From positions 126,314 through 190,313 of the forward strand of contig NZ_CP046204.1 in assembly GCF_012569925.1 (NCBI RefSeq): DNA of 64,000 bases, given 5' to 3'. The translations under genes and the position numbers were made by a program. Below the pieces are notes generated by a model. It was not told where the DNA came from, made no database searches, and worked only from the letters and a program-made list of their open reading frames with translations. Position 1 is the first letter of the stretch. Every line of letters starts with the position of its first letter. Below are positions 2,803 to 19,564 of the stretch, piece after piece. This DNA comes from Enterobacteriaceae endosymbiont of Donacia cinerea. GTDB taxonomy: Bacteria > Pseudomonadota > Gammaproteobacteria > Enterobacterales > Enterobacteriaceae.

Positions 2803-2945
2803 GTAAATAAATATCCTTTTAACTCAATTTTATAAGTTATATATTTTTAAATTTATGTTTTAAAAAATAAATATTAATTTTATAATATTAATTTTTATAA
2901 ATTTATGTATATTTTATATATTATTATTTTTTTTAAAAATCTAAT

Positions 2946-5345
2946 TTAATTTTTATAATTTTCTAACTGTTCAATTTTTTTTTTAGCTTTATTAATAACT
3001 TCTTTAGGAATTCCTGCTAAAGATGCTACAAACAAACCATAATTTTTATTAATTGATCCATTCTTAATTTTATGTAAAAAGACAATAGAATTATTAATTT
3101 TTATTGCATCAAAATATATATTTTTTATACATTTATTTTTATCTTTTAATTTTGTTAATTCAATATAATTAGTTGCAAATAAAGTAAGTGATTTATTTTT
3201 TTTTGCAATATATTCTGTACAAGACCAAGCTATAGCTAAACCATCATGTGTAGATGTACCTCTTCCTACTTCATCCATTAATACTAAACTTTTTGAAGTT
3301 GCATTTCTTAAAATATTTGCAGTTTCTATCATTTCAACCATAAAAGTAGATAATCCGGAAGAAATATTATCTGTAGATCCTATTCTTGTAAAAATTCTAT
3401 CTATTGGTCCTATAATAGCTTTATCCGCTGGAACATAACTACCTATATAAGTCATTAAAATAATTAATGCTATTTGTCTCATATAAGTACTTTTACCACC
3501 CATATTAGGACCTGTTATTAACAATATATGATGATTTTTAGTTAATAATACATTATTAGATATAAAAGGTATTTTTACAATATTTTCGACAATAGGATGT
3601 CTTGAATTAGTTAAAGAAATACCTATTTTTTTATTTAAAATAGGACAAGTATAATTTAAAGTTATAGATCTTTCAGCTAAATTACATAATACATCTAATT
3701 CTGATAAATATAATGATAATTTTTGTAAATTTTTTAAAAAAGGATTAATATAATAAAATAATTTGTTATATAAATTTTTTTCTAAATTTAAAAGATTTTC
3801 TTTAGAAGAAAAAATATTTTTTTGATATTTTTGTAATTCTGGAATAATATATCTATTAAAATTTTTTAAAGTTTGAATTTGAATATATTTATTAGGGAGA
3901 TTATATTTATAACTTTTATTAAGTTGGATATAATATCCATGAACTGTGTTGTATCCTATTTTTAATTTTTTTATTTTTAATGAATTACGTTCTTTATTTT
4001 CTAGATAAGATAAATATTTATTTGAATCTTTTGATAATTTTCTTAAATCGTCTAATAATACATTATATCCAGTTGCAATAACATTTCCCTCTTTTAAAGA
4101 GGGAGCTGGTTTTTCTTTTATAGATTTTTTTAATAAATTTTTTAATGAAGTAAATAATCCTAATTTTAAAATTTTAAATTTTATTTCACAATCATTTATA
4201 TTTTGAAAAATATTATGAATATTAGGTAAATAATTTAACGTCTCTCTTAAAGAGACTAAATCATTTGGTTTAGCAGTTCTTAAAGCTAATCTAGCAATAA
4301 TTCTTTCAATATCACCAATTTTTGACAATATTTTTTTAAAATTAAAATAATATTTTTGTAAAATAGAAATATTTTTTTGTCTATTTAAAATAATTTTAAT
4401 ATCACGTATTGGATTATTTAACCATCTTTTTAATAAACGACTACCCATATTTGTAGTAGTATAATCTAATATTTTAACTAAAGTATTATTTTTATCTCCA
4501 GAAATACTATTAATAATTTCTAAATTTTTACGAGTATTTTCATCCATAATAATTTCATTATTATGTCTTTCTAAAAAAATATTGTTAATATGAGGTAGAT
4601 ATACTCTTTGTGTATCTTTAACATATTGTATTAAACATCCTGCGGCTCTAATAGCTAATAATGATTTTTCAATACCAAAACTTTTTAAATTTTTAGTTTT
4701 AAATTGCATATTCAATTGTTGAATAGCTGTATCTATATCAAATTCCCATAATGGTCTACGTCTAATACAGTATCTTTTTTCTAATAAATTTATATCTTTA
4801 AAATTTTCAGAATATAATAATTCTTTAGGATTTGTTCTTTGTAATTCTCCAGCAATAATATTAATATCTTTATTTTCCATAATTCTAAAATCACCAGAAC
4901 TAATATTTAGTGTAGCATAACCAAATCCTAATTTTATATCTTGATATATTGACCCTAATAAATTGTCGATATTATTTTTTAATAAAATATCATCACTAAC
5001 TGTTCCGGGTGTAATAATTCTAACTATTTTTCTATCTAAAATTTTTTTTTTAGATAAAGTTTTTTTATTTTGTATCTGTTCACAAATAGCTATAGATTCT
5101 CCTAACTTAATTAATTTTGATAAATAATTATCTATACTATTAACTGGTATACCTGCCATAGGAACAGGTTTTCCATTTAATTTACCTCTCTTAGTTAAAA
5201 CAATATTTAATAATTTTGATGCTTTTTTTGCATCTTCAAAAAACATTTCATAAAAATCTCCTAATCTATAAAATAATAAAATATTAGGATATTGTTTTTT
5301 TAATTTAAAATATTGATCCATCATAGGTGTTAGTGTTATAGACAT
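2946..5345 (-). CDS. mutS: DNA mismatch repair protein MutS
   Basis: MutS recognises mismatches and small loops and recruits MutL. The 799-residue protein keeps the mismatch-reading DFYEMF motif near residue 32 (Phe-x-Glu wedge), the connector and lever regions, and the C-terminal ABC-type ATPase with Walker [11 protein letters not shown] and the MDEVGRGTS Walker B and signature region. It is shorter than E. coli MutS (853), mainly because the C-terminal tetramerisation tail is missing: the protein ends shortly after the helix-turn-helix. mutL is retained at 49983-51704, so the mismatch-recognition pair is present; mutH is not seen in this window. The gene lies 143 bp upstream of gyrA on the same strand. 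Confidence 0.98.
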
Positions 5346-6318: not shown

Positions 6319-7251
6319 ATGAATCATATACCTGTTTTATTAAAAGAATCCGTTAATAGTTTAAATATTAAAGATAATGGAATATATATAGATGCTACTT
6401 ATGGTTGTGGAGGTCATACAAGATTAATTTTATCTAAATTAGGAAATTATGGCAAAATTTATGCAATAGATTGTGATATAAAAACAATATTAAAATATAA
6501 AATTTTAGATAATAGAATTATTTATATAAATAATAATTTTTCAAATTTAAAAACTATTTTAAATAAAAAAATAGGTAAAATAGATGGAATATTATTTGAT
6601 TTAGGAATTTCTTCTTTTCAATTAAATAATTCTAAAAGAGGTTTTTCTTACATGTTTAATGGACCATTAGATATGCGTATAAATCAAAAAAATAAAATAA
6701 CAGCTTATAATTTATTAAAAAACATAAATGAAAAGAAATTATCTGAAATATTAAAAATATATGGTGAAGAAAAATATCATAAAAAAATAGCATATAATAT
6801 AAAAAAAAACATGTTAAATAACAAATTACATAACACAAAAGATTTATCATATTCAATATGTTCTTCTATTCCTAAAAATAATAAATTTAAACATCCAGCA
6901 AAAAGATCTTTTCAAGCAATAAGAATTTTTTTAAATCAAGAAATAGAAGAATTAAAAAAAGCTTTAAATATTTCATTGGAATTACTAAAAAAAAATGGCA
7001 TTATAGCTACAATTAGTTTTCACTCTATTGAAGATAGAATTATTAAGTATTTTATGAAAAAATATAGTTCTTTAAATAAACAAAATATTCATAATAAATT
7101 ACCTTTAACTGAGAAAGAAATAAATAATTTTTATTATAAAAATAATAAAATAAAATTAAAAATTATTAATAGGATTTTTCCTAGTAAAAAAGAAATTTAT
7201 GAAAATCCAAGATCTCGAAGTGCAATACTACGTATTGCACAAAAAATATAA
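6319..7251 (+). CDS. rsmH: 16S rRNA m4C1402 methyltransferase RsmH (MraW)
   Basis: RsmH methylates N4 of C1402 in the decoding centre of 16S rRNA using S-adenosylmethionine. The 310-residue protein shows the family N-terminus (MNHIPVLL.E), the SAM-binding DATYGCGGHT motif at about residues 25-34, DGILFDLGISS..LN, RGFS and DMR, and the C-terminal ISFHSIEDRI and NPRSRSA.LR motifs. It opens the mur cluster. The usual preceding gene mraZ is absent, and the usual following genes ftsL and ftsI are missing: only 60 bp separate it from murE. No promoter could be assigned with confidence in the purely AT spacer upstream. Confidence 0.97.
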   Translation: MNHIPVLLKESVNSLNIKDNGIYIDATYGCGGHTRLILSKLGNYGKIYAIDCDIKTILKYKILDNRIIYINNNFSNLKTILNKKIGKIDGILFDLGISSFQLNNSKRGFSYMFNGPLDMRINQKNKITAYNLLKNINEKKLSEILKIYGEEKYHKKIAYNIKKNMLNNKLHNTKDLSYSICSSIPKNNKFKHPAKRSFQAIRIFLNQEIEELKKALNISLELLKKNGIIATISFHSIEDRIIKYFMKKYSSLNKQNIHNKLPLTEKEINNFYYKNNKIKLKIINRIFPSKKEIYENPRSRSAILRIAQKI

Positions 7252-7311
7252 AAAGAATAATCTTATTTATTATTTAATTTTAATAAAATATCTTGAATTA
7301 AGGATTTAAAA

Positions 7312-8817
7312 TTGAATGTTTCTTTATTTAGTTTACAAAAATTATTAAATAATTATATAAAAAGTAATTTAATAAAAAATATTTTAATAAATAGAATAGT
7401 TTTAGATAGTAGAAAAGTAAAAGGAAAAAATTGTCTTTTTATAGCAATAAAAGGATATAAAAAAAATGGTAGAGAATTTATAAAACATGCTATATTAAAA
7501 GGAGCTATTGCTATATTAACTTATACAGATGAAAAAACATCATCTTATAATATTATTTTAAAAAAAAATATACCTATTATATATCTACCTAATTTACATA
7601 AATATATTTCACATTTTGCCGGAATATTATATGATCATCCAAGTAAAAAAATACCCGTTATAGGAATTACAGGGACTAATGGAAAAACAAGTATAACTAT
7701 TTTTTTAATGCAATGGATTAAATTATTAGGAGGTAATCCAGCTATTTTAAGTACTATCGGTAATGGGTTTAATAAAAAATTAATTAAAACAAATAATACA
7801 ACAGATTCAGCAATAGAAATACAGTCCACATTAAAAAAATTTATAAATAAAAAAGCAAATATTATAATAATGGAAGTTTCTTCTCATGGATTATCTCAAT
7901 ATAGAATATTTGATATATTTTTTTCTATTGGTATTTTTACAAATTTAACTAGAGATCATTTAGATTATCACATAAATATGAAAAATTATGAATTATCTAA
8001 ATGGAAATTTTTTTCTGACCATAAGATAAAACAAAAAATTATAAATATTGATGATAATACAGGATTAAAATGGTTTAAAAAATTACCTAATGCAATCCCA
8101 ATTACTACTAAAAAAAAATTTTTATATAAATCAAATGTATTTATTTATATAAAAAAAATAACTTATTTATATAATAAAACAATTATTAAGTTTAATTCAA
8201 GTTGGGGTGATGGAAAAATAAAAATAAATCTTATAGGAAAATTTAATGTTATAAATATTATTTTAAGTATGGCTGCATTATTAAAATTAAATTATCCTTT
8301 AAAAAAATTATTGAAAACAGCATCTAAAATAAAATCTGTTAAAGGACGTGTAGAAAAAATTTTTTTTAAAAAAAAATATTCTAATATAATAATTGATTAT
8401 GCTCATACTCCTGATGCATTAAAAAATATATTATTAGCAATAAGATCAAGTACTCAAGGTAAAATATGGTGTATTTTTGGTTGTGGAGGGGAAAGAGATA
8501 TCGGGAAAAGAAAAATAATGGGTTATATAGCTACTAAATATGCTGATATTATAATTTTAACAACTGATAATCCTAGAACAGAAAATATAAATAATATTAT
8601 CAAGGATATAAAAAAAGGATGTATTACATTACATAATGTATTTATTATTTTAAATAGAATTAAAGCTATTAGTTATGCAATATTTAATTTTTCTAAAAAA
8701 GATACTATTTTAGTAGCAGGGAAAGGACATGAAGATTACCAAATTATTAATAATAAAATTTTAAATTATTCAGATTTTGATACTATTCAAAATATATTAA
8801 AAATATTACATGAATAA
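7312..8817 (+). CDS. murE: UDP-MurNAc-tripeptide synthetase MurE
   Basis: MurE adds meso-diaminopimelate to UDP-MurNAc-L-Ala-D-Glu in peptidoglycan precursor synthesis. The 501-residue protein has the Mur ligase ATP loop GITGTNGKTS near residue 120, the EVSSHGL segment, the SRDHLDYH-like TRDHLDYH motif and the C-terminal DNPR motif that marks diaminopimelate (not lysine) specificity. The start is a TTG at 7312, supported by an AAGGA ribosome binding site at 7300-7304 with 7 nt spacing and by alignment of the first residues with E. coli MurE; no in-frame ATG fits. It overlaps murF by 8 bp, implying translational coupling. Confidence 0.96.
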   Translation: MNVSLFSLQKLLNNYIKSNLIKNILINRIVLDSRKVKGKNCLFIAIKGYKKNGREFIKHAILKGAIAILTYTDEKTSSYNIILKKNIPIIYLPNLHKYISHFAGILYDHPSKKIPVIGITGTNGKTSITIFLMQWIKLLGGNPAILSTIGNGFNKKLIKTNNTTDSAIEIQSTLKKFINKKANIIIMEVSSHGLSQYRIFDIFFSIGIFTNLTRDHLDYHINMKNYELSKWKFFSDHKIKQKIINIDDNTGLKWFKKLPNAIPITTKKKFLYKSNVFIYIKKITYLYNKTIIKFNSSWGDGKIKINLIGKFNVINIILSMAALLKLNYPLKKLLKTASKIKSVKGRVEKIFFKKKYSNIIIDYAHTPDALKNILLAIRSSTQGKIWCIFGCGGERDIGKRKIMGYIATKYADIIILTTDNPRTENINNIIKDIKKGCITLHNVFIILNRIKAISYAIFNFSKKDTILVAGKGHEDYQIINNKILNYSDFDTIQNILKILHE

Positions 8818-10183
8818 TTTAATTAGTTTAAAAAAACTATCAAAAATAGTTAATGGAATATTAATTGGAAATAATATTGAAATAATAAATTTTTCAATAA
8901 ATAGTAAAAAAATTAACGAAAAATGTTTATTTATTGCTATTCATGGAAAAAATTTTGATGGACATGATTTTATTAAAGAAGCAATTAATAATGGAGCACT
9001 AGCTATATTAGTAAATAAATTTTGCAATATTAATATTCCTCAAATAATAGTATTTAATACTATCCTAGGATTAGGAAAAATAGGTTTATGGAAAAGAAAT
9101 CAATTCAAAAATAATATAATAGGAATAACAGGTTCATCAGGTAAAACTTCAGTTAAGGAAATGACAGTATCTATATTAAGAAAAAAATATAATATTATTT
9201 ATACTAAGAAAAATATGAATAATCATATAGGTATTCCTCTAACATTATTAAATTTAACAAATTATTATAAATGTGCAGTAATTGAAATAGGAGGTAATCA
9301 AATTAATGATATTTCTTATACTACTAATTTAGTTAAACCTAATATTGCAATAATTAATAATATATCATCATCACATCTAGAAGGTTTTAAATCATTACAA
9401 AATATTATTAAATGTAAAAGTGATATTTTTAATTATTTAACAAATAAAGGAATTGCTATTCTTAATTATGATGATAAAAATCAAAAAAAAATATTAAAAA
9501 AATTAATTAATAATAAAAATATTTTAACTTTTTCGTTACATAATAAAAAAGCTGATTTTTTTACAAAAAAAATAACGATTTTATCAAATAAAATTGAATT
9601 TATTTTAATTTCTCCTATAGGAGAAGTATTAATTCAATTATTTTTAATAGGAGGAGGAATACATAATATTAGTAATGCGTTAGCATCTTCTGCATTATCT
9701 TTTACTATTGGAGCTTCTTTAAAAGATATAGCAATTGGTTTAAAACATTTTAAAGCAATCCAAGGAAGAATGTATCCAATTATTATTGATAATAATAAAT
9801 TAATTATTAATGATGCATATAATGCAAATCCTAATTCTGTAAATATAGCTATAAATATTTTAAAAAATTTTCGTGGTACAAAAATTTTAGTTATTGGAGA
9901 TATGTTAGAATTAGGTATTTATACATTATTTTATCATAAAAAAATAAAAAATTTAATTTTAAAAACTAATATAAATTATATCTTAAGTATCGGAAAATAT
10001 AGTAAATATATTACTGAAAATAATATAAATGCAAAACATTTTTCAAATAAAAATTTATTAATAAATGAATTATTTTTAATAATAAAGAAATTAAAAAATT
10101 ATACAATTTTATTTAAAGGATCACGTAATAATAAAATGGAAATATTAATTGATATTTTATTGGAGAAATTAAAATGTTATTAA
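8810..10183 (+). CDS. murF: UDP-MurNAc-pentapeptide synthetase MurF
   Basis: MurF attaches D-Ala-D-Ala to the UDP-MurNAc tripeptide, finishing the soluble pentapeptide precursor. It has 457 residues, close to E. coli (452). Visible features are the ATP-binding GITGSSGKTSVKEM motif near residue 105, the NNHIGIPLTLL segment, EIGGNQ (family EMGAN), INDAYNANP near residue 340 and the GDMLELG motif. The start overlaps murE by 8 bp and the end overlaps mraY by 10 bp. It uses the dipeptide made by Ddl, encoded at the end of this cluster. Confidence 0.97.
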   Translation: MNNLISLKKLSKIVNGILIGNNIEIINFSINSKKINEKCLFIAIHGKNFDGHDFIKEAINNGALAILVNKFCNINIPQIIVFNTILGLGKIGLWKRNQFKNNIIGITGSSGKTSVKEMTVSILRKKYNIIYTKKNMNNHIGIPLTLLNLTNYYKCAVIEIGGNQINDISYTTNLVKPNIAIINNISSSHLEGFKSLQNIIKCKSDIFNYLTNKGIAILNYDDKNQKKILKKLINNKNILTFSLHNKKADFFTKKITILSNKIEFILISPIGEVLIQLFLIGGGIHNISNALASSALSFTIGASLKDIAIGLKHFKAIQGRMYPIIIDNNKLIINDAYNANPNSVNIAINILKNFRGTKILVIGDMLELGIYTLFYHKKIKNLILKTNINYILSIGKYSKYITENNINAKHFSNKNLLINELFLIIKKLKNYTILFKGSRNNKMEILIDILLEKLKCY

Positions 10184-11259
10184 TATTAATTAAATGTTTA
10201 GCATATTTTTCAAAAAATTTAAATTTTTTTTTTATAAACTTTAAAATTCGTTTAATAATGTCATTATTAACATCTTTTATTATTACTTTTTTTTTAAGTC
10301 CATTTTTTATTAATTATTTAAATAAAAAAAAAATTTCTCAAATTATTAGAAAAGAGGGACCTATAACACATTATTCTAAAAATAATATCCCAACTATGGG
10401 AGGTTTAATTTTATTATTATCTATTTTTATTTCTGTTATTTTTTGGTCTAATTTATTTAATAAATATATCTTTTATGCCTTATTTCTAATGATATTATAT
10501 GCAATAATTGGATTTGTAGATGATTATTATAAAATTATTTTAAATAATTCTACAGGATTATCTCCATATAAAAAACTTTTTTTTCAATCTATTACTACTA
10601 TTTTTATAATAGTATTAATTTATATAAATAATACAGAAAAAATATATATACAATATATTATACCAATCTTTAATTTAAGAATTAAATATAATTTAAATTT
10701 GATTTTATATTTAACATTTTCTTATTTTATAATTATAGGAATAAGTAATTCTGTTAATTTAACTGATGGATTAGATGGTTTAGTTATTATGCCTATAATT
10801 TTTATTTCTTTAGCATTATCTATATTATGTTATTTTTCAGGAGATATATATTTTTCTAAAAATCTTCATTTTATTTATATAAAAAATATAAAAGAACTAA
10901 TAATAATATGTTTATCTATTGTTGGTTCAGGACTAGGATTTTTATGGTATAATACTTATCCAGCTAAAATTTTTATGGGAGATATAGGATCATTATCTTT
11001 AGGTTGCATCATATCTATGATTGCAATATTAATAAGACAAGAATTTTTATTTCTTATAATGTGTGGTGTGTTTATATTAGAAGCAATTTCTGTAATAATT
11101 CAAGTTTTAAGATTTAAATATGACAAAAAACGTTTTTTTTTAATGGCACCTTTACATCATCACTATGAACTAAAAGGAATTGCCGAACCTTGTATTATTA
11201 TTAGATTTTGGATCATTTCATTAATATTAGTATTGTTTTCTTTAATTATAATAGTATAA
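10174..11259 (+). CDS. mraY: Phospho-MurNAc-pentapeptide translocase MraY
   Basis: MraY transfers phospho-MurNAc-pentapeptide from UDP to undecaprenyl phosphate, giving lipid I at the inner membrane. The 361-residue protein has about ten hydrophobic segments and the family signatures PTMGG near residue 70, FVDDYYK with the catalytic aspartates, NLTDGLDGL near residue 195, the FMGDIGSL motif and the MAPLHHHYELKG histidine motif. Length equals E. coli MraY (360), and the first 30 residues align with it, supporting the ATG that overlaps murF by 10 bp. Confidence 0.98.
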   Translation: MLLILIKCLAYFSKNLNFFFINFKIRLIMSLLTSFIITFFLSPFFINYLNKKKISQIIRKEGPITHYSKNNIPTMGGLILLLSIFISVIFWSNLFNKYIFYALFLMILYAIIGFVDDYYKIILNNSTGLSPYKKLFFQSITTIFIIVLIYINNTEKIYIQYIIPIFNLRIKYNLNLILYLTFSYFIIIGISNSVNLTDGLDGLVIMPIIFISLALSILCYFSGDIYFSKNLHFIYIKNIKELIIICLSIVGSGLGFLWYNTYPAKIFMGDIGSLSLGCIISMIAILIRQEFLFLIMCGVFILEAISVIIQVLRFKYDKKRFFLMAPLHHHYELKGIAEPCIIIRFWIISLILVLFSLIIIV

Positions 11260-11270
11260 AAATATTTAAA

Positions 11271-12587
11271 ATGAATAAAAAAATACTTATTATAGGATTA
11301 GGATTAACAGGTATATCATGTTTAAATTTTCTTTTAAAGAAAAATATTATACCTTCCGTTATGGATATATCTAATTATCCCAAATTTATAAAAAAAATAC
11401 CATCTTATGTCCCATGCCATTTAGGTTATTTTAAAAAAGATTGGATATTAAATTCACAATTAATAATTTTAAGCCCCGGTATATCAATATTTAATAATCT
11501 TTTATTAGAAGCAAAAAAAAAAGGCATTGAAATAATAGGAGATATAGAATTATTTGCTCGTTATAATAAAACACCTGTAATAGCGATTACAGGAACTAAT
11601 GGAAAAAGTACTGTTACCAACATGATTGGAAAAATTATGAAAAAAAATAATTTTAATGTTAGTATCGGGGGTAATATCGGATATCCAGTTTTAGATTTAT
11701 TATCTTTTGTTAGAGATTTTTATATTTTAGAAATTTCTAGTTTTCAATTAGAAACTATTAAAAAATTAGATGTGTATATTGCTGTTATTTTAAATATCTC
11801 AGAAGATCATATGGATCGATATCCTCTAGGTATTCAACAATACCGTAATTTTAAACTACATATTTATAAACATGCTTCTATTTGTATATATAATGCTGAT
11901 AATATATTATGTTATCCTAAATATTTTAAAAAAAAAAAAAAATATATAACTTTTGGAGAATTTTCTGGAAAATATACATTATGTTATAATAAAAAAGATG
12001 TATATTTACAAATCAATCATCAAAAAATTTTAAATTTTAATAAAACTAAATTGATTGGAATTCATAATTATTTAAATGCTTTAGCAGTATTGGCTGTAAC
12101 AGATGTATTAAAAATTTCTAAAAAAATTTCTTTACAACAAATAAGTAATTATCTAAATATGGATCATATATTACAAATAATACATATAGAAAATGGAGTA
12201 ACTTGGATTAATGATTCAAAATCTACAAATATTAGTAGTACTAAAGCTGCTTTAAAATATTTACATAAAAAAAAAAGAATTTGGTTATTATTAGGAGGAT
12301 ATGATAAAAATTGTAAATTATATTTATTAAAAAAATATTTACAAAAAAAAAATAATATTAATGTTTATTGTTTTGGAGTATTAAGAAAAAAAATATTATC
12401 TATTTATCCTAAAGCAAAAATAGTAAAAACAATACATCAAGGTATAGAACAAATAATTAAATTAGTAGAATACGGAGATGTTGTATTATTATCACCCGCT
12501 TGTTCTAGTATTGATCAATTTAAAAATTTTAAACATCGTGGACAAGAATTTGTAAGATTAGTTAAAAAATTTCATAATCCTAAATAA
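11271..12587 (+). CDS. murD: UDP-MurNAc-L-alanine:D-glutamate ligase MurD
   Basis: MurD adds D-glutamate to UDP-MurNAc-L-alanine. I start it at the ATG at 11271 (MNKKILIIGLGLTG), giving 438 residues as in E. coli. An upstream in-frame start at 11208 would overlap mraY by 52 bp and add a tail that no family member has. Motifs seen are the N-terminal nucleotide-binding GLGLTG, ATP loop AITGTNGKST near residue 105, EISSFQLE, NISEDHMDR and the C-terminal LLSPACSS.DQF..F..RG. It contains a run of 15 adenines at 11928-11942, read as five lysines in frame. ftsW, which follows murD in the ancestral order, is missing; murG begins 69 bp later. Confidence 0.96.
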   Translation: MNKKILIIGLGLTGISCLNFLLKKNIIPSVMDISNYPKFIKKIPSYVPCHLGYFKKDWILNSQLIILSPGISIFNNLLLEAKKKGIEIIGDIELFARYNKTPVIAITGTNGKSTVTNMIGKIMKKNNFNVSIGGNIGYPVLDLLSFVRDFYILEISSFQLETIKKLDVYIAVILNISEDHMDRYPLGIQQYRNFKLHIYKHASICIYNADNILCYPKYFKKKKKYITFGEFSGKYTLCYNKKDVYLQINHQKILNFNKTKLIGIHNYLNALAVLAVTDVLKISKKISLQQISNYLNMDHILQIIHIENGVTWINDSKSTNISSTKAALKYLHKKKRIWLLLGGYDKNCKLYLLKKYLQKKNNINVYCFGVLRKKILSIYPKAKIVKTIHQGIEQIIKLVEYGDVVLLSPACSSIDQFKNFKHRGQEFVRLVKKFHNPK

Positions 12588-12656
12588 TATATTTTTATAA
12601 AAAAATATTATATAATTTAAAATATTTTAATTTATATTAAATTTTTTTTTAAAAAA

Positions 12657-13721
12657 ATGAAAAAAAAAAAAAAAATTCTTATAGTAGCTGGTGGAACAGG
12701 AGGACACATTTACCCAGCTTTAAATATAGCATATAAATTAATAAAAAAGGGATGGGAAGTTCGCTGGTTAGGATCATTATCTCGAATGGAATCGCAAATT
12801 ATTCCTAAAAAAAACATACATATTTATTTAATAAAATTTTTTAGATTTAAAAATAAAAATATTTTTTCTATAATTATTACTATAATAAAATTATTAATAT
12901 CAACTTATAAATCAATTTTAATTTATAAAAAATATAAACCACATTTAGTTTTAACCATGGGGAGTTATATTTCTGGTCCAAGTGGCTTAGCTGCATGGTT
13001 ATGTAATATACCATTAATAATACATGAACAAAATAGTATTCCTGGTATAACAAATAAAATTTTATCAACAATAGCAACAATAAAAATGCAAGCATATCCT
13101 AGTACATTAAATAATGCAATATTAGTAGGAAATCCTATAAGTAAAAAAATTATTAAATTATCTTTATATAAAAGATCTATTTTAAAAATTCATAAACCAA
13201 TTCGTGTATTTATTACAGGAGGAAGTCAAGGATCAGATATTTTAAATAAAATTGGTATAAAACTAGCTGAAATTTTAAAAAATAAAATATCTATTTTACA
13301 TCAAGTGGGAAAAGGAAATTTAAAAAAAATATTTTATGAATATAAGAAAATTATTATTAATAATTTAGCTTTAAAAGAATATATAAAAAATATAGATAAA
13401 GCATATAAATGGGCTGACATTATTATATGTAGATCAGGAGCAATGACTGTAAGTGAAATTACAGCAATAGGTCTACCTGCTATTTTTATACCTTTCCAAC
13501 ATAAAGATAAACAACAATATTTTAATGCAATTCATTTAGAAAAAATAGGAGCTGCTAAAATTTATGAACAAAATAATTTAAATATTAATAAAATTGTTAA
13601 TACTATATTAACTTTAAACACAAAAAAAATTATATATATGTCAAATAAATCTTATAATTTGTCTATAAAAAATTCAACAGAATTAATTTATCAAGAATTA
13701 AATAAAATAAAAATTAATTAA
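12657..13721 (+). CDS. murG: UDP-GlcNAc lipid I transferase MurG
   Basis: MurG adds GlcNAc to lipid I to make lipid II on the inner face of the membrane. The 354-residue GT28 glycosyltransferase has the glycine-rich loop VAGGTGGHIYPAL near residue 9, the MGSYISGPSGLAA segment, LHEQN-type IHEQNS, TGGSQGSDILN near residue 187, HQVGKG, CRSGAMTVSEI near residue 260 and PFQHKDKQQYFNA. The start codon sits inside homopolymers: nine or ten T, seven A, ATG, then sixteen A (12660-12675), and no Shine-Dalgarno sequence is visible. The five N-terminal lysines are an artefact-prone stretch; the frame as deposited is intact. Confidence 0.96.
   Translation: MKKKKKILIVAGGTGGHIYPALNIAYKLIKKGWEVRWLGSLSRMESQIIPKKNIHIYLIKFFRFKNKNIFSIIITIIKLLISTYKSILIYKKYKPHLVLTMGSYISGPSGLAAWLCNIPLIIHEQNSIPGITNKILSTIATIKMQAYPSTLNNAILVGNPISKKIIKLSLYKRSILKIHKPIRVFITGGSQGSDILNKIGIKLAEILKNKISILHQVGKGNLKKIFYEYKKIIINNLALKEYIKNIDKAYKWADIIICRSGAMTVSEITAIGLPAIFIPFQHKDKQQYFNAIHLEKIGAAKIYEQNNLNINKIVNTILTLNTKKIIYMSNKSYNLSIKNSTELIYQELNKIKIN
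12660..12675 (+). repeat. 16-base poly(A) tract at the start of murG
   Basis: Sixteen consecutive adenines follow the G of the murG start codon, preceded by seven more adenines before the ATG and a T run before those. It is the longest mononucleotide run I noticed inside a gene in the window. Such tracts are known sites of replication and RNA polymerase slippage in AT-rich symbiont genomes, so a mixture of in-frame and frameshifted transcripts is plausible here. Confidence 0.9.
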
Positions 13722-13754
13722 TTTAATTATTATAAATAAGATGAAATTTTAAAT

Positions 13755-15212
13755 ATGCTTAATCAAAAAATATTAAATAATATACCAAAAATGAAAAATA
13801 TTAATTATATATATTTTATTGGTATCGGTGGTTCTGGTATGGGAGGTATTGCAACAATTTTAGCAAAACAAGGATATAAAGTTAGTGGTTCAGATTTATT
13901 TTCTAATTTTATTACAAAAAGTTTAAATTTATTAAATATAAAAATATATTTTCAACATGATGCTAAAAACATTACAAATAATATAGATCTTATTATAGTA
14001 TCTACTGCTATTAATAATAATAATCCAGAATTAATTGCTGCAAAAAAATTAAATATTACTATTCTTAGTAGAGCACAAATATTAGCAGAATTAATGAGAT
14101 TTTCTTATGGTATAACAATTACAGGAACACATGGAAAAACTACGACTACTGCTTTAATATATAAAATATTTAAATTAGCTAAATTAAATCCCACTTTTAT
14201 TAACGGAGGAATTTTAAAATTTTCTAAAGAATATGCTTATTTAGGTTCAGGTAAATATTTTATTACAGAAGCAGATGAAAGTGATAAATCTTTTTTATAT
14301 TTAAATCCTATTGTAAATATAATTACAAATATTGAAAAAGAACATTTAAATTTTTATAAAAATGATATTGAAATTTTAAAAAAAAACTTTTTAAAATTTC
14401 TAAAAAAAATACCATTTTATGGATGTATAATTATTTGTATAGATAATTTTCATAATTATGATTTAATAAAAAAAAATAAAAATATTTTAAAACAAAATAT
14501 TATCACGTATGGTTTTAATAAAAATGCTGATATTCAATTATATAATTACCGACAAAATGGTTACAAATGTAAATTTTCTTTATTAGAAAAAATAAAAAAC
14601 CTTTCTATAGAAATAGATTTAAATATTCCTGGATATCATAATGCTTTAAACGCAACAGCTGCATTTGCAATATCATCTTATATAGGAATAGATTATTCTG
14701 TAATTATAAAATCTTTAAAAAATTTTGAAGGTATTAAAAGAAGATTTGATATTTTAGGTATTTTATTCCCTCATAAAAAAACAAAATGTAAAAAAAATAT
14801 AATTATTATTGATGATTATGGACATCATCCAACTGAAATAAATATGACTATTAAAACAGCACGACAAATATGGCCAAATAAAAAATTAATAATGGTTTTT
14901 CAACCTCATCGTTATTCTAGAACTAAAAATTTATTAACTGAATTTGTAAAAATATTATCTAAAGTTGATAAACTATTTATTCTAGAAGTTTATTCTGCAG
15001 GTGAAATATTAATTGAAAATGCTAATAGTGAATATTTAACTAAAAAAATAAAAAAATTTGGTATAATTATTCCTATTTTAATTAAATCAAAAAATTATTA
15101 TGATATTATAAATAATATATATTTACAATTAAAAGGTAATGAAATATTAATTTTTCAAGGAGCAGGTGATATAAATCATATATCATCATTATTAATAAAT
15201 AATAAATTTTAA
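13755..15212 (+). CDS. murC: UDP-MurNAc:L-alanine ligase MurC
   Basis: MurC performs the first committed ligation, adding L-alanine to UDP-MurNAc. The 485-residue protein aligns with E. coli MurC (491) along its length: FIGIGGSGMGGIA near residue 21, ATP loop ITGTHGKTTTTAL near residue 124, EADESD near residue 175, NIEKEHLNFY, the YHNALNATAA segment and the DDYGHHPTE motif near residue 353, followed by FQPHRYSRT. It starts 33 bp after murG and ends 54 bp before ddl, so co-transcription along the whole cluster is likely. Confidence 0.97.
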   Translation: MLNQKILNNIPKMKNINYIYFIGIGGSGMGGIATILAKQGYKVSGSDLFSNFITKSLNLLNIKIYFQHDAKNITNNIDLIIVSTAINNNNPELIAAKKLNITILSRAQILAELMRFSYGITITGTHGKTTTTALIYKIFKLAKLNPTFINGGILKFSKEYAYLGSGKYFITEADESDKSFLYLNPIVNIITNIEKEHLNFYKNDIEILKKNFLKFLKKIPFYGCIIICIDNFHNYDLIKKNKNILKQNIITYGFNKNADIQLYNYRQNGYKCKFSLLEKIKNLSIEIDLNIPGYHNALNATAAFAISSYIGIDYSVIIKSLKNFEGIKRRFDILGILFPHKKTKCKKNIIIIDDYGHHPTEINMTIKTARQIWPNKKLIMVFQPHRYSRTKNLLTEFVKILSKVDKLFILEVYSAGEILIENANSEYLTKKIKKFGIIIPILIKSKNYYDIINNIYLQLKGNEILIFQGAGDINHISSLLINNKF

Positions 15213-15266
15213 AATTTAAAAAATTAAATAATAATAAATAACTTTAATAACTTTTAATTAAAAATT

Positions 15267-16190
15267 ATGTCTAAAAAAATAGCTGTTTTATTTGGGGGTA
15301 ATTCTCCAGAAAGAGAAATTTCTTTAAAATCTGGTAAAAAAATTTTAAATGCTTTATTAAAATTAGGAATTAATGCTATTGGGATAGATCCAATAAATTT
15401 TCCACTGTTATATTTAAATAAATATGGATTTAAAAAAGTTTTTATATCTTTACATGGAAAAGGAGGAGAAGATGGTACTATTCAAGGAATATTAAATTAT
15501 CTTAATATTCCTTATACTGGAAGTAATTTATTATCTTCTGCAATTACTATGAATAAATTTCTTACAAAAACTATTTGGAATGAATATGGATTACCTGTTA
15601 TTTATCCTCATTATTTATTAAATAAAAAAAATTTTATAAAATTAAATTATTTAAAAATTGAAAAGAAAATTTTAAAATTTAAATTACCTGTATTTATAAA
15701 ACCTAATTGTAATGGATCCAGTTTAGGTATTTCAAAAGTTGAACATTTAGATGATTTATTTAATGCAATAGAAAAATCATTTATATATAGTGATGATATT
15801 TTAATTGAAAAATATATAAAAGGTGAAGAATATACAGTAGGAATTTTAGATAAAAATATTTTACCCCCTATAAAAATAGAATATCCTGATTCTTTTTATA
15901 ATTATCAAGCCAAATATTATTTAAATACTACTAAATATTTCTGTCCTAGTGGATTAAATAAAAACAAAGAAAAAGAACTAAAAAATATAGTTCTAAAAGC
16001 ATGGAATGTAGTAAAATGTAATAAATGGGGGAGAATTGATGTTATTTTAGATGAAAATCAAAAATTTAAATTATTAGAAATTAATACTATACCTGGAATG
16101 ACATCTCATAGTTTATATCCAATAGCAGCAAAAAAAATGGGATTATCTTTTTATGATTTAGTTTTAAAAATTTTAAATTTAAATAAATAA
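15267..16190 (+). CDS. ddlB: D-alanine--D-alanine ligase
   Basis: Ddl joins two D-alanines with ATP, supplying the dipeptide used by MurF. The 307-residue ATP-grasp enzyme has the N-terminal VLFGGNSPEREISL.SG motif, HGKGGEDGTIQG near residue 63, the KPNCNGSSLGISK segment, IEKYIKGEEYTVGIL and the metal-binding end EINTIPGMTSHSL.P. Its place after murC marks it as the DdlB type of the ancestral dcw cluster. After it the ancestral ftsQ, ftsA, ftsZ and lpxC are all missing: a DUF721 gene on the other strand ends 27 bp away. Confidence 0.96.
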   Translation: MSKKIAVLFGGNSPEREISLKSGKKILNALLKLGINAIGIDPINFPLLYLNKYGFKKVFISLHGKGGEDGTIQGILNYLNIPYTGSNLLSSAITMNKFLTKTIWNEYGLPVIYPHYLLNKKNFIKLNYLKIEKKILKFKLPVFIKPNCNGSSLGISKVEHLDDLFNAIEKSFIYSDDILIEKYIKGEEYTVGILDKNILPPIKIEYPDSFYNYQAKYYLNTTKYFCPSGLNKNKEKELKNIVLKAWNVVKCNKWGRIDVILDENQKFKLLEINTIPGMTSHSLYPIAAKKMGLSFYDLVLKILNLNK

Positions 16191-16217
16191 AAAATTTGAT
16201 TTAATTAATTATATTTA

Positions 16218-16712
16218 TTAATTTTTATTAACAATACAATACGTTATTTTAATAAATTTTTTTATTATATACTTTAATTTTTTAGGACTCTGTTCTGCAA
16301 TATTTAATAATAAATTAGCACTATATTTACTTAATATTTTTTTTTTAATTTTATATTTATTGATATTATTAGCAAATTTTTTTTTAAAAAAAATAGGATT
16401 AATTTTGATATCTATTTCTTTTAAAGATGGAATAATGTGTTTTTTTAAATAATATAAAATATTAGATTTTTCAGATAAAAATCTAATCATAGAACTAGCA
16501 TTATATGTTTCTATAATTAAAACATTATTTTTAAAATTTTTAACATTATACCATTTACGTAAATGTATAGGTAAATATTTTTTAAGAAAATTATTAATTT
16601 TTATTAAAACATCTGTATGTATATATATGTTATAAAGTACATCATTATAAGATGAATAATGTTTTTTTTTAAAAATTTTATTAATCAATAATAATTTATT
16701 ATTACGCATCAT
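16218..16712 (-). CDS. DUF721 / DciA-like protein
   Basis: This 164-residue basic protein looks like the DUF721 (DciA) family: a helical start, an LP.HLR.W-type segment near residue 48, then alternating hydrophobic residues (NNVLIIETYNASSMIRFLSEK) typical of the family's KH-like core, and a helix with LKKHIIPSLKEI. It sits between ddl and secA on the opposite strand, where DUF721 genes occur in other gammaproteobacteria next to lpxC and secA. DciA is the ancestral loader or operator of the replicative helicase DnaB in bacteria lacking DnaC. The lysine-rich C-terminal third has no clear match. It is not SecM, which would be on the secA strand with a signal peptide and arrest motif. Function by inference only. 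Confidence 0.62.
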   Translation of the reverse strand: MMRNNKLLLINKIFKKKHYSSYNDVLYNIYIHTDVLIKINNFLKKYLPIHLRKWYNVKNFKNNVLIIETYNASSMIRFLSEKSNILYYLKKHIIPSLKEIDIKINPIFFKKKFANNINKYKIKKKILSKYSANLLLNIAEQSPKKLKYIIKKFIKITYCIVNKN

Positions 16713-16825
16713 TTGATCCTCTTATTTTTTTTATAAAAAATTATATATATTTTTTTTATTTTGTTAAAATAAATATTAATTAATATTTATAATTATACAA
16801 ATATCTTTTTATTAAGAGTATTTAT

Positions 16826-19564
16826 ATGTTAAAAAAAATTTTTACTAAAATTTTTGGTAGTAATAATGATCATGTTTTACGACGTATTCAAAAAACAGTA
16901 AATATTATTAATGAGATGGAAGCAGAATTTGAAAAATTAACTAATTTTGAATTACAAAATAAAACTTTATTTCTAAAAGAAAAATTAGAAAAAAATTTTT
17001 CTTTAGAAGATATTTTACCGGAAGCTTTTGCAACAGTTAGAGAAGCTAGTAAAAGAATATTTGGTATGCGTCATTTTGATGTTCAATTAATAGGAGGTAT
17101 TGTATTAAATAATAATTGTGTTGCGGAGATGAAAACTGGAGAGGGAAAAACATTAACTTCTACATTACCAGCTTACTTGAATGCTCTTACTGGAAAAGGA
17201 GTTCATATTGTTACTGTTAATGATTATTTAGCACAAAGAGATGCTTTAAATAATAGAGTATTATTTAAATTTTTAGGATTAACTGTAGGTATTAATATAT
17301 CTTCTATGTCATTAGAAGAAAAAAAAGATGCTTATCAAGCAGATATTACTTATGGAACTAATAATGAATATGGTTTTGATTTTTTAAAAGATAATATGGT
17401 TTTTGATTATACTCATAAAGTACAACGTGGTTTGCATTATGCTATTATTGATGAAGTTGATTCAATATTAATTGATGAATCTCGTACTCCTTTAATTATT
17501 TCAGGACCGGCAGAAGATAGTTCAGAACTATATGTAAAAATAAATAGTATTATTCCTAAATTAATTTATCAGTCTAAAGAAGATTCTAGTTTTTATAAAG
17601 GTAAAGGACATTATTTTATAGATGAAAAATCTCGTCAAGCATATTTAACAGAAAGAGGTTTAATATATTTAGAAAAAATATTGATAGATGAAAAAATAAT
17701 AAATAAAGGAGAATCTTTATATTCTAGTAAAAATATTATTATTTTACATCATATTATTTCTGCTTTAAGGGCACATAATCTTTTTAAAAAAAATGTAGAT
17801 TATATTTTAAAAAATAATAAAATAATAATAGTAGATGAACATACTGGAAGATTAATGGAAGGTAGAAGATGGTCAGAAGGATTACATCAAGCAATAGAAG
17901 CAAAAGAAAATGTAAAAATTAATAATGAAAATCAAACTTTAGCATCTATTACATTTCAAAATTATTTTAGATTATATCAAAAATTATCAGGTATGACGGG
18001 GACTGCTAGTACAGAATCTTTTGAATTTAAAGAAATTTATAAATTAAACACAATAGTAATTCCAACTAATATGCCTATGGTTAGAAAAGATTTACCTGAT
18101 TTAATTTATTTAACTAAAAAAGAAAAAATAAAAGCCATAATTAAAGACATAAAAGAAAAACATCTTAAGGGTCAACCTATTTTGGTTGGAACTGTTTCAA
18201 TTAAAAAATCAGAATTAATTTCTCAAAAATTAAAAAAAATAGGTATAAAACATAATGTTCTAAATGCTAAATTTCATGCTAGAGAAGCAGAAATTATATC
18301 AAAAGCAGGTATGAAATATGCGGTAACAATCGCAACTAACATGGCTGGTAGAGGTACTGATATTGTTTTAGGTGGTATTTTTATATTAAATAGTAAATTT
18401 AGTTTAGATAAATTAAAAAATTTAAAATTACAATGGAAAGTAAAACATGATGAAATCGTTAAATTAGGTGGTTTATATGTTATTGGAACTGAACGTCATG
18501 AATCTAGAAGAATCGATAATCAATTACGAGGACGTTCAGGAAGACAAGGAGATAAAGGTATGTCAAGATTTTATCTATCAATGGAAGATTCTTTAATGCG
18601 TATTTTTGCACCTAAAAACATGTTATTTTTAATGCAAAAATTAGGAATGAAATATAATGATTATATTGAACATCCTTGGATAACAAAAGCTATATCTAAA
18701 GCACAAAAAAAAGTAGAAAATTATAATTTTGAAATACGTAAACAATTACTTGAATATGATGATGTAATAAATGATCAACGATTATCAATATATTCACAAA
18801 GAAATAAATTACTAAAATCATTAAAAACTAATGAAATAATTAAAAATTTTAGAATCGATGTATTTACAAAATTAATAAATGATTATATAAAATCTGATAA
18901 TTTTATTAAAGAAAAATGGAATTTAAAAGAACTAAAAACTTATTTTTTAAATATTTTAAATTTAAATTTACCATTAAAAAATTGGATAAATATATTTAAA
19001 GAAAAAAATAAAAAAAAAATTAATAAAAATTATTTATTAAAAAAAATTATTGATTTTTCAAAAAAAGAATATTTAAAAAAAATCAATAATTTAAAAATAC
19101 AAGATATAAAAATTTTTGAAAAAAATATTATTTTAAAAATTTTAGATGATTTATGGAAAGAACATCTTGCCTCAATAGAATATTTAAAACAAGGTATACA
19201 TTTAAGAGGTTATGCACAACAAGATCCTAAACAAGAATATAAAAAAGAATCTTTCTATATGTTTAATACAATGTTAGATAATTTAAAAAAAGAAGTAATT
19301 ATTGCTTTAAATAAAGCAGAAAACAAAATAATAAATGATTATTATAAATTTGCCAGTACTTTAAAAAATACTAAAAGTATTAATAATAATATAAAAAATA
19401 ATAATTTATTAATCTTAAAAAAAAGAGTTAATGCTTATATAAATAAAGATAATAAATATTTGAATAACACTAATTTTATCAAAAAAAAAATAGGTAGAAA
19501 TGAAAAATGTCCTTGTTACTCGGGTAAAAAATATAAATTTTGTCATGGTTTAATAATTAAATAA
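16826..19564 (+). CDS. secA: Protein translocase ATPase SecA
   Basis: SecA is the ATPase motor that pushes preproteins through SecYEG. The 912-residue protein matches E. coli SecA (901) over its length: Walker [10 protein letters not shown] near residue 103, the NDYLAQRDA segment, [11 protein letters not shown] near residue 208, GMTGTA near residue 391, [12 protein letters not shown] and the [10 protein letters not shown] motif of the second motor half. The C-terminus keeps the zinc-binding SEC-C motif [14 protein letters not shown] that contacts SecB and lipids. No SecM-type leader precedes it, so the E. coli arrest-peptide control appears to be absent. It shares a strong hairpin terminator with convergent dnaJ. 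Confidence 0.98.

What the first reader, a model, noticed from the sequence alone, without database searches (positions are those of the whole stretch)
6319..16825. A mur cluster stripped of every cell-division gene
The ancestral dcw order is mraZ-rsmH-ftsL-ftsI-murE-murF-mraY-murD-ftsW-murG-murC-ddlB-ftsQ-ftsA-ftsZ-lpxC-secM-secA. Here all peptidoglycan precursor genes remain in order and intact, while ftsL, ftsI, ftsW, ftsQ, ftsA and ftsZ have each been removed exactly, leaving only 27-69 bp scars (7252-7311, 12588-12656, 16191-16217). Selective loss of the divisome and septal synthase genes with full retention of lipid II synthesis suggests that cell wall is still made but classical FtsZ division is gone or host-driven, or that the genes moved elsewhere.
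Basis: partly seen in the sequence, partly recalled or inferred. Interest (0 to 1): 0.7.

Follow-up and report, generated by a model that had tools for sequence, protein, structure and literature searches.

The report
Reed-beetle symbiont without FtsZ divisome
The bacterial partner of a reed beetle has lost FtsZ and the other core division proteins searched for but still builds a cell wall, and it and many of its sister species keep an intact-looking copy of the system best known for positioning FtsZ.

Summary
Confirmed. The mur cluster is intact; ftsL, ftsI, ftsW, ftsQ, ftsA and ftsZ are gone from their places, leaving 60, 69 and 27 nt. By chromosome and plasmid length the genome is the Donacia cinerea (reed beetle) symbiont. 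MreB, MreC, PBP2 and RodA occur in 24 of 24. FtsZ loss beside a kept Rod complex is known (Chlamydia, Wolbachia J), so that half is a new member of a known kind. The unexpected half lies outside the window: 16 of 24 genomes keep minC and minD (13 with intact minE) without FtsZ, and minD and the MinC C-domain are under stronger purifying selection (omega 0.024, 0.023) than the mur/ddl genes (0.043-0.108). None of 16 other FtsZ-less relatives tested has MinC. By parsimony Min was lost completely at least three times and decays in two more lineages. Most likely: FtsZ-independent proliferation with a Rod-only wall, and a Min system serving something other than a Z ring. How the cells divide is inferred, not shown.

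The parts
6319..7251 (+). rsmH (mraW), 310 aa
   Evidence: NCBIfam TIGR00006 328 bits, cut-off 154
7252..7311 (.). 60-nt junction where ftsL and ftsI stand in the ancestral order; has an AAGGA stretch shortly before murE
   Evidence: same junction 46-135 nt in 24 of 24 genomes; alignable in the nine species pairs compared (0 of 500 single-base shuffles each)
7312..8817 (+). murE, 501 aa (TTG start as listed)
8810..10183 (+). murF, 457 aa
10174..11259 (+). mraY, 361 aa
11268..12587 (+). murD, 439 aa from the likely ATG (the mechanical ORF starts at 11208)
12588..12656 (.). 69-nt junction where ftsW stands in the ancestral order
   Evidence: 12-118 nt in 24 of 24 genomes; alignable in six of six pairs
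12657..13721 (+). murG, 354 aa
13755..15212 (+). murC, 485 aa
15267..16190 (+). ddlB, 307 aa
   Evidence: found in 24 of 24 genomes of the genus
16191..16217 (.). 27-nt junction where ftsQ, ftsA, ftsZ and lpxC stand in the ancestral order
   Evidence: 6-133 nt in 24 of 24 genomes; alignable in three of six pairs, not in two, one not tested because of Ns
16218..16712 (-). probable dciA (DUF721), 164 aa
   Evidence: Pfam PF05258 E 0.0017, 18.9 bits, below the 24-bit cut-off; no NCBIfam hit
16826..19564 (+). secA, 912 aa, closing the ancestral cluster
   Evidence: name from the sequence; not run against a family library

Best explanation
The window holds the remnant dcw cluster of the Donacia cinerea symbiont. 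SHOWN: no FtsZ in 24 of 24 genomes of the genus and no FtsK over the cut-off; one transpeptidase gene per genome; in this genome it is PBP2 and the only SEDS gene is RodA, so FtsI and FtsW are gone; the lipid II genes of the cluster are intact; MreB, MreC, PBP2 and RodA are found in all 24. SHOWN: where it remains (16 of 24) the Min system is under strong purifying selection. INFERRED by parsimony: FtsZ was lost before the genus diversified, the ancestor kept an E. coli-type Min system, and that system was later lost completely at least three times. INFERRED: the cells proliferate without a Z ring. Filaments grow by MreB-guided RodA-PBP2 synthesis, and constriction or budding is either done by the same Rod machinery, as in Chlamydia, or imposed by host tissue. 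INFERRED: MinCDE still makes a membrane pattern, now used for something other than FtsZ, such as placing wall synthesis or other membrane proteins, or helping chromosome segregation in long cells.
For: FtsZ: 0 of 24 genus genomes, found in 33 of the 60 genomes searched and in 13 of 14 controls. One PF00905 gene in each of 24; here it is MrdA (TIGR03423 601 bits, cut-off 455; FtsI model 118 against a cut-off of 737) and the single SEDS gene is RodA (TIGR02210 408 over 337; FtsW model 283 under 338). FtsK: none over cut-off in 24 of 24. mreB, mreC, mrdA, mrdB matched in 24 of 24; mreB omega 0.008. MinC and MinD in 16 of 24, both absent in the same 8. omega over six independent pairs: minD 0.024, MinC C-domain 0.023, MinC N-domain 0.109, minE 0.087 (five pairs), the seven mur/ddl genes and rsmH 0.043-0.108; omega 1 is rejected for each. 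The ftsL-ftsI and ftsW junctions are alignable in all six pairs (0 of 500 shuffles), so those losses very probably predate each pair. MinD residues K11, K16, D40, S148, R151-R155 (R, D, S, D, R) and I159 are identical in all 30 sequences aligned; RSGQ is present in all 16 MinC of the genus. Larval symbionts were filamentous (D. thalassina) or irregular (M. mutica), adult ones round (PMC12508126 section 12).
Against: Nothing here shows how a cell divides. By the tree five lineages without FtsZ have lost or are losing Min, so it is dispensable at least there. In the pair with minE pseudogenes the MinC N-domain omega is 0.42, not distinguishable from 1 (2dlnL 1.4), and minD rises to 0.073. The ddlB-dciA junction, the one that held ftsZ, is too short or too diverged to align in two of six pairs and was not tested in one, so for those the timing of the FtsZ loss rests on parsimony. 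mreD is missing or shortened in 8 of 24 and mrdA lacks its N-terminal ~70 residues in D. clavipes and D. dentata, so the Rod system erodes too. mrdA and mrdB omega are higher in Min-less pairs (0.137, 0.134) than in Min-plus pairs (0.071, 0.080), but so are murD and ddlB (0.111 against 0.043, 0.128 against 0.042), so this is not specific.
Confidence: 0.6

Rival explanations
1. Min is a slowly decaying relic without present function; it outlived FtsZ by chance and is being lost piecemeal.
For: Complete clean loss in Plateumaris, D. tomentosa and D. clavipes/D. dentata; minE pseudogenes in D. proxima and D. piscatrix; MinC N-domain decayed and no minE match in N. nigricornis.
Against: omega 0.023-0.024 for minD and the MinC C-domain, below all seven mur/ddl genes and rsmH; even MinC N and MinE (0.109, 0.087) are far from neutral (2dlnL 70 and 82). 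minD is open over its full length in 16 of 16.
Confidence: 0.2
2. Division is host-driven: Rod only elongates and shapes the cells; host cell division, membrane remodelling, hydrolases or antimicrobial peptides cut the filaments.
For: Shape changes with host life stage (PMC12508126 section 12); FtsZ, FtsI, FtsW and FtsK are gone.
Against: MreB and RodA-PBP2 are kept in 24 of 24, with mreB the most constrained gene measured; there is no direct evidence either way.
Confidence: 0.3
3. The retained Min system works mainly in chromosome segregation, covering for lost partition functions such as FtsK.
For: No FtsK over the cut-off; a review reports segregation defects in E. coli minCDE deletions, with two studies pointing to MinDE oscillation rather than MinC (PMC6803595, passages).
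Against: MinC is also kept, with omega 0.109 (N) and 0.023 (C), which a MinDE-only role does not explain; the same review reports that DNA was not recruited to MinDE waves in vitro; other partition genes were not searched here.
Confidence: 0.25
4. FtsZ was missed: too divergent for the model, on an unassembled replicon, or supplied by another genome.
Confidence: 0.03

Closest known systems
Wolbachia supergroup J (PMC10591338, passages from Tables 1-2 and Conclusion)
   Same: No FtsZ; MreB, RodA, PBP2 and most lipid II genes retained; the review already proposes that the elongasome may stand in for the divisome.
   Different: Its table gives FtsK 100%, FtsQ 50%, MreC 0% and no Min genes in Wolbachia J; here FtsK is not found, MreC is kept and minCDE is kept in part of the clade; Enterobacteriaceae, reed-beetle symbiont.
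Chlamydia (FtsZ-less polarized budding that uses elongasome parts; PMC10591338, passages)
   Same: No FtsZ; MreB, MreC, RodA, PBP2 and lipid II synthesis kept.
   Different: Chlamydia keeps FtsI, FtsW, FtsK and FtsL/B/Q homologues in 99-100% of genomes in that table and has no Min genes; here FtsI, FtsW and FtsK are absent and MinC/MinD are present in 16 of 24.
E. coli MinCDE
   Same: Operon order minC-minD-minE; Walker and MinC/MinE-contact residues of MinD, RSGQ of MinC, the C-terminal MinD tail and the MinE N-terminal region are conserved.
   Different: The known target FtsZ is not in the genome.
Buchnera of Lachninae (PMC10591338, passages)
   Same: Reduced insect symbiont with eroded division genes that keeps minCDE.
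   Different: Buchnera keeps FtsZ and FtsA and, in that table, has no MreB, RodA or PBPs; the reed-beetle symbiont is the reverse.

Membership tests
Canonical dcw cluster / FtsZ divisome | ftsZ, ftsI, ftsW in the genome | tested here: not met
   FtsZ 0 of 24; only MrdA and RodA in this genome; one PF00905 gene in each of 24. SEDS searched genome-wide only in G000.
Canonical dcw cluster / FtsZ divisome | ftsA anywhere in the genome | tested here: inconclusive
   Absent from its place in 24 of 24. No dedicated FtsA search; the MreB model found only MreB and a match inside dnaK in G000.
FtsZ-less, elongasome-retaining obligate symbionts (Chlamydia, Wolbachia J) | No FtsZ, with lipid II genes, MreB, PBP2 and RodA | tested here: met
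   murA, murB and murJ were not searched; PMC12508126 mentions murB and murI in symbionts of the group.
FtsZ-less, elongasome-retaining obligate symbionts (Chlamydia, Wolbachia J) | FtsK retained | tested here: not met
   No match over the cut-off in 24 of 24; 6 of 24 have a sub-cut-off match of 21-46 residues
FtsZ-less, elongasome-retaining obligate symbionts (Chlamydia, Wolbachia J) | Division shown to depend on MreB/PBP2 | not testable with these tools
   needs labelling and inhibitors in living symbionts
E. coli-type MinCDE system | minC, minD, minE with both MinC domains | tested here: met
   G000: MinC_N 44.8, MinC_C 99, MinE 67.1 bits, all over cut-off, MinD ParA-type. Across the genus: both MinC and MinD in 16 of 24; full-length MinC 15 of 16; intact MinE 13 of 16
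E. coli-type MinCDE system | Catalytic and contact residues of MinD; RSGQ of MinC | tested here: met
   invariant in 16 of 16; roles of S148, D154, I159 and RSGQ from PMC6803595 passages, the other positions recalled; numbering follows G024
E. coli-type MinCDE system | FtsZ as target | tested here: not met

The most novel reading that the evidence does not exclude
Reed-beetle symbionts carry a natural FtsZ-free Min oscillator: the MinCDE pattern has a selected function independent of FtsZ, retained since before the diversification of the host subfamily, and MinC, known as an FtsZ inhibitor, acts on another target (for example the Rod machinery) in the lineages where both of its domains are still constrained.
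Probability: 0.5. Interest if true: 0.82.

Novelty: new variant of a known kind. Interest (0 to 1): 0.62.

Why it matters
Whether Min does anything important without FtsZ is an open question that is hard to ask in E. coli because FtsZ effects dominate. This clade is a natural experiment: 24 relatives without FtsZ, 13 with the full Min operon, two with MinC and MinD but a broken minE, one with MinD and the MinC C-domain only, eight with none. It also bears on a published inference: the 2025 transcriptome paper (PMC12508126) cites minCDE as a reason to think that the symbionts regulate their own division, calls MinC the Z-ring positioning protein and suggests that its larval upregulation could reflect inhibited division; but no FtsZ is found in these genomes, and 8 of 24 have neither MinC nor MinD.

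Tried and rejected
Rejected: genes moved elsewhere; assembly artefact (24 of 24 genomes). The named-genome scan with DdlB returned 41 loci at 48% identity or less, no congener. I first thought of Profftella from the genome size; plasmid content and Table 1 of PMC7289800 settled the reed-beetle identity. IQ-TREE codon models did not optimise for the MinC N-domain and minE (they stayed at omega 1, kappa 1), so those two rest on my own pairwise codon likelihood. For genes fitted by both, the GY model of IQ-TREE agrees (minD 0.028-0.029 against 0.024, ddlB 0.060 against 0.043); its MG model gives about twice the values (minD 0.063, MinC C 0.067, ddlB 0.130, murG 0.177) with minD and MinC C still lowest. 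MinC N-domain identity to an enteric reference is only slightly lower in this clade (28-35%) than in reduced relatives with FtsZ (37, 38%), so it gives no clear sign of lost FtsZ binding. A higher omega of mrdA and mrdB in Min-less pairs proved unspecific when mur genes were checked. Literature: a search needing the phrase 'MinC MreB' and one for lost ftsZ with retained minCDE found no paper; one search gave general FtsZ-less papers. Not done, cap reached: FtsA, FtsL, FtsQ, RodZ, amidases, parABS, mukBEF, lpxC, SEDS genus-wide. Rows dropped: D. crassipes from murG (frame broken), D. proxima and D. piscatrix from minE, P. sericea from mrdA omega (script artefact; its frame is open), short mreD frames, N. 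nigricornis from MinC_N; sequences with N.
Full report
Identity. The window is C1:126314-190313 of a genome of 468,015 bases in two contigs, 16-25% GC in 4-kb steps. Chromosome 462,896 and plasmid 5,119 equal the Donacia cinerea symbiont in Table 1 of Reis et al. 2020 (PMC7289800, section 6 read; lengths). The chromosome lengths of the 23 congeners held each equal one line of that table; D. versicolorea and D. semicuprea are not among them. The plasmid encodes part of a PheA-type protein (prephenate dehydratase region, below the NCBIfam cut-offs) and a TrfA-like replication protein, both gene kinds named for these plasmids in that paper (passages).

The observation. All 24 genomes show rsmH-murE-murF-mraY-murD-murG-murC-ddlB, the minus-strand dciA-like ORF, then secA. 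One genome (D. crassipes) has a broken murG frame.

Are the genes elsewhere? FtsZ (PF00091): no candidate in this genome, 0 of 24 in the genus (one of them, G003, only 83% complete), found in 33 of the 60 genomes searched, including two reduced symbionts at E about 1e-50. Transpeptidase (PF00905): exactly one match in each of 24 genomes; here a 633-aa MrdA. SEDS (PF01098): one match in G000, RodA, next to mrdA; not searched genome-wide in the congeners. A class A PBP would carry a second transpeptidase domain, so none is apparent. FtsK: no match over the cut-off in 24 of 24; six genomes have 21-46-residue sub-cut-off matches. FtsA: absent from its place in 24 of 24, not searched on its own.

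What remains. mreB, mreC, mrdA and mrdB were matched in 24 of 24. mreD follows mreC at full size in all 16 Donacia, is short (127-132 aa) in two Macroplea and not recognised there in five Plateumaris and Neohaemonia (one weak 29% match in the P. rustica stretch). mrdA lacks about 70 N-terminal residues in D. clavipes and D. dentata. mreB is the most constrained gene measured (omega 0.008). With the seven cluster genes for lipid II precursors intact, the likely wall synthesis route is RodA-PBP2 alone (inference).

Min without FtsZ. G000 has minC C1:106504-107271, minD 107306-108115 and minE 108117-108401 (domains). MinC and MinD occur together in 16 of 24 genomes and are both absent in the same 8: five Plateumaris, D. 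tomentosa, D. clavipes, D. dentata. In those eight the interval between rnt and tsaB is 135-304 nt, 778 in D. tomentosa, without credible remains; a few weak low-complexity minC matches fell elsewhere. minE is intact in 13 of the 16, a pseudogene with stops in D. proxima and D. piscatrix, and not found in N. nigricornis, whose MinC has also lost its N-domain frame. On a tree of seven cluster proteins the complete losses fall in three separate clades (support for Plateumaris with Donacia 81), so if Min is not regained the common ancestor had it. All 24 lack FtsZ; a single ancestral loss is the simplest reading and fits the published view that erosion preceded diversification (PMC7289800), but independent losses cannot be strictly excluded. 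For the selection test: the ftsL-ftsI and ftsW junctions are alignable in six of six pairs (0 of 500 single-base shuffles reach the score); the junction that held ftsZ is alignable in three, not in two (one partner has only 6 or 11 nt there; 32 and 308 of 500), and was not tested in one that contains Ns. So the losses very probably predate each pair, with the direct sign for ftsZ itself in three of six.

Selection. Codon likelihood over six phylogenetically separate pairs: minD 0.024, MinC C-domain 0.023, MinC N-domain 0.109, minE 0.087 (five pairs); ddlB 0.043, murD 0.047, murE 0.071, murG 0.083 (five pairs), rsmH 0.085, murF 0.088, murC 0.096, mraY 0.108, dciA-like ORF 0.182; Rod genes mreB 0.008, mrdA 0.071, mrdB 0.080, mreC 0.137, mreD 0.157 (five pairs). 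omega 1 is rejected for every gene (2dlnL 69.6 or more). In the D. proxima/D. piscatrix pair, which has lost MinE, MinC N is 0.42 (not different from 1), minD 0.073, MinC C 0.029: relaxation accompanies MinE loss. In Min-less pairs mrdA, mrdB, murD and ddlB all show higher omega than in Min-plus pairs while mreB does not, which I read as unspecific. Motifs for ATP binding, MinC/MinE contact and the MinD tail are kept. So Min is not neutral where it is complete.

How unusual? In the family survey 358 of 392 genomes have FtsZ and 34 do not, so FtsZ loss as such is recurrent. Of these 34, 20 were listed: five belong to this genus and 15 do not. I tested those 15 plus G058 for MinC: 0 of 16; the 14 unlisted were not tested. 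One further genome in that call, G290, has FtsZ and no MinC, so the two genes can be lost in either order. A review of obligate intracellular bacteria finds Min genes only in Buchnera, together with FtsZ (PMC10591338, passages). The same review gives FtsZ-less Chlamydia and Wolbachia J with MreB, PBP2 and RodA, so the Rod-only half is precedented; another FtsZ-less relative here (G029) also carries an mrdA-mrdB pair.

Literature. Reis et al. 2020: no occurrence of 'ftsZ' or 'cell division' in the main text. [quoted passage not shown] mutica could reflect inhibited division; 'ftsZ' does not occur in its main text. It reports filamentous or irregular larval cells and round adult cells in two species. 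No paper in the library (open-licence PubMed Central only) holds both 'Donaciinae' and 'FtsZ'; a search needing three of 'reed beetle', ftsZ, minC and 'cell division' listed 10 of 680 papers, none of the ten holding 'reed beetle'. Supplementary files could not be read, so the absence may be visible in gene tables there.

Mechanism. Shown: Z-ring genes lost; Rod genes and the cluster's lipid II genes kept; Min kept under selection in part of the clade. Inferred: growth as Rod-built filaments, fission by Rod-directed constriction or host action, Min as an FtsZ-independent pattern. The review of MinCDE (PMC6803595, passages) names two roles besides FtsZ, non-specific regulation of membrane proteins (in vitro) and a possible part in chromosome segregation. 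It also states that both MinC domains inhibit FtsZ; the constraint on MinC in cells without FtsZ is the part that neither role explains.

Noticed in passing
L046 (G000:C2) 1-2778: The small plasmid encodes a 925-aa inverse-autotransporter (invasin/intimin-like) protein with Ig-like and adhesion domains; the words intimin, invasin and autotransporter do not occur in the main text of PMC7289800.
   Followed up: partly
L046 (G000:C2) 2831-3511 (-): The plasmid pheA-type ORF (226 aa) matches only residues 97-285 of the 386-residue bifunctional model, so its chorismate mutase part is not in this frame.
   Followed up: no
window 16218-16712 (-): Probable DciA-type gene retained next to secA, fast evolving (omega 0.182), matched in 24 of 24.
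   Followed up: partly
L140 7909-8972: murG frame broken near residue 65-70 in the D. crassipes symbiont while the rest of the cluster is open; could be assembly error or real.
   Followed up: partly
L228, L239: mrdA of D. clavipes and D. dentata lacks the first ~70 residues, where the membrane anchor normally lies.
   Followed up: no
L202-L221 and L245-L247, after mreC: mreD is missing or shortened in 8 of 24 genomes; in four of five Plateumaris a TldD-like ORF follows mreC (name recalled from the sequence).
   Followed up: partly
L149 (G029): Another FtsZ-less genus of the family has an adjacent mrdA-mrdB pair, with mrdB matched in two overlapping pieces.
   Followed up: no
L001 3337-3792 (-): A shortened holA (DNA polymerase III delta, C-terminal part only, 45 bits, under the 80-bit cut-off) sits upstream of mrdA.
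   Followed up: no
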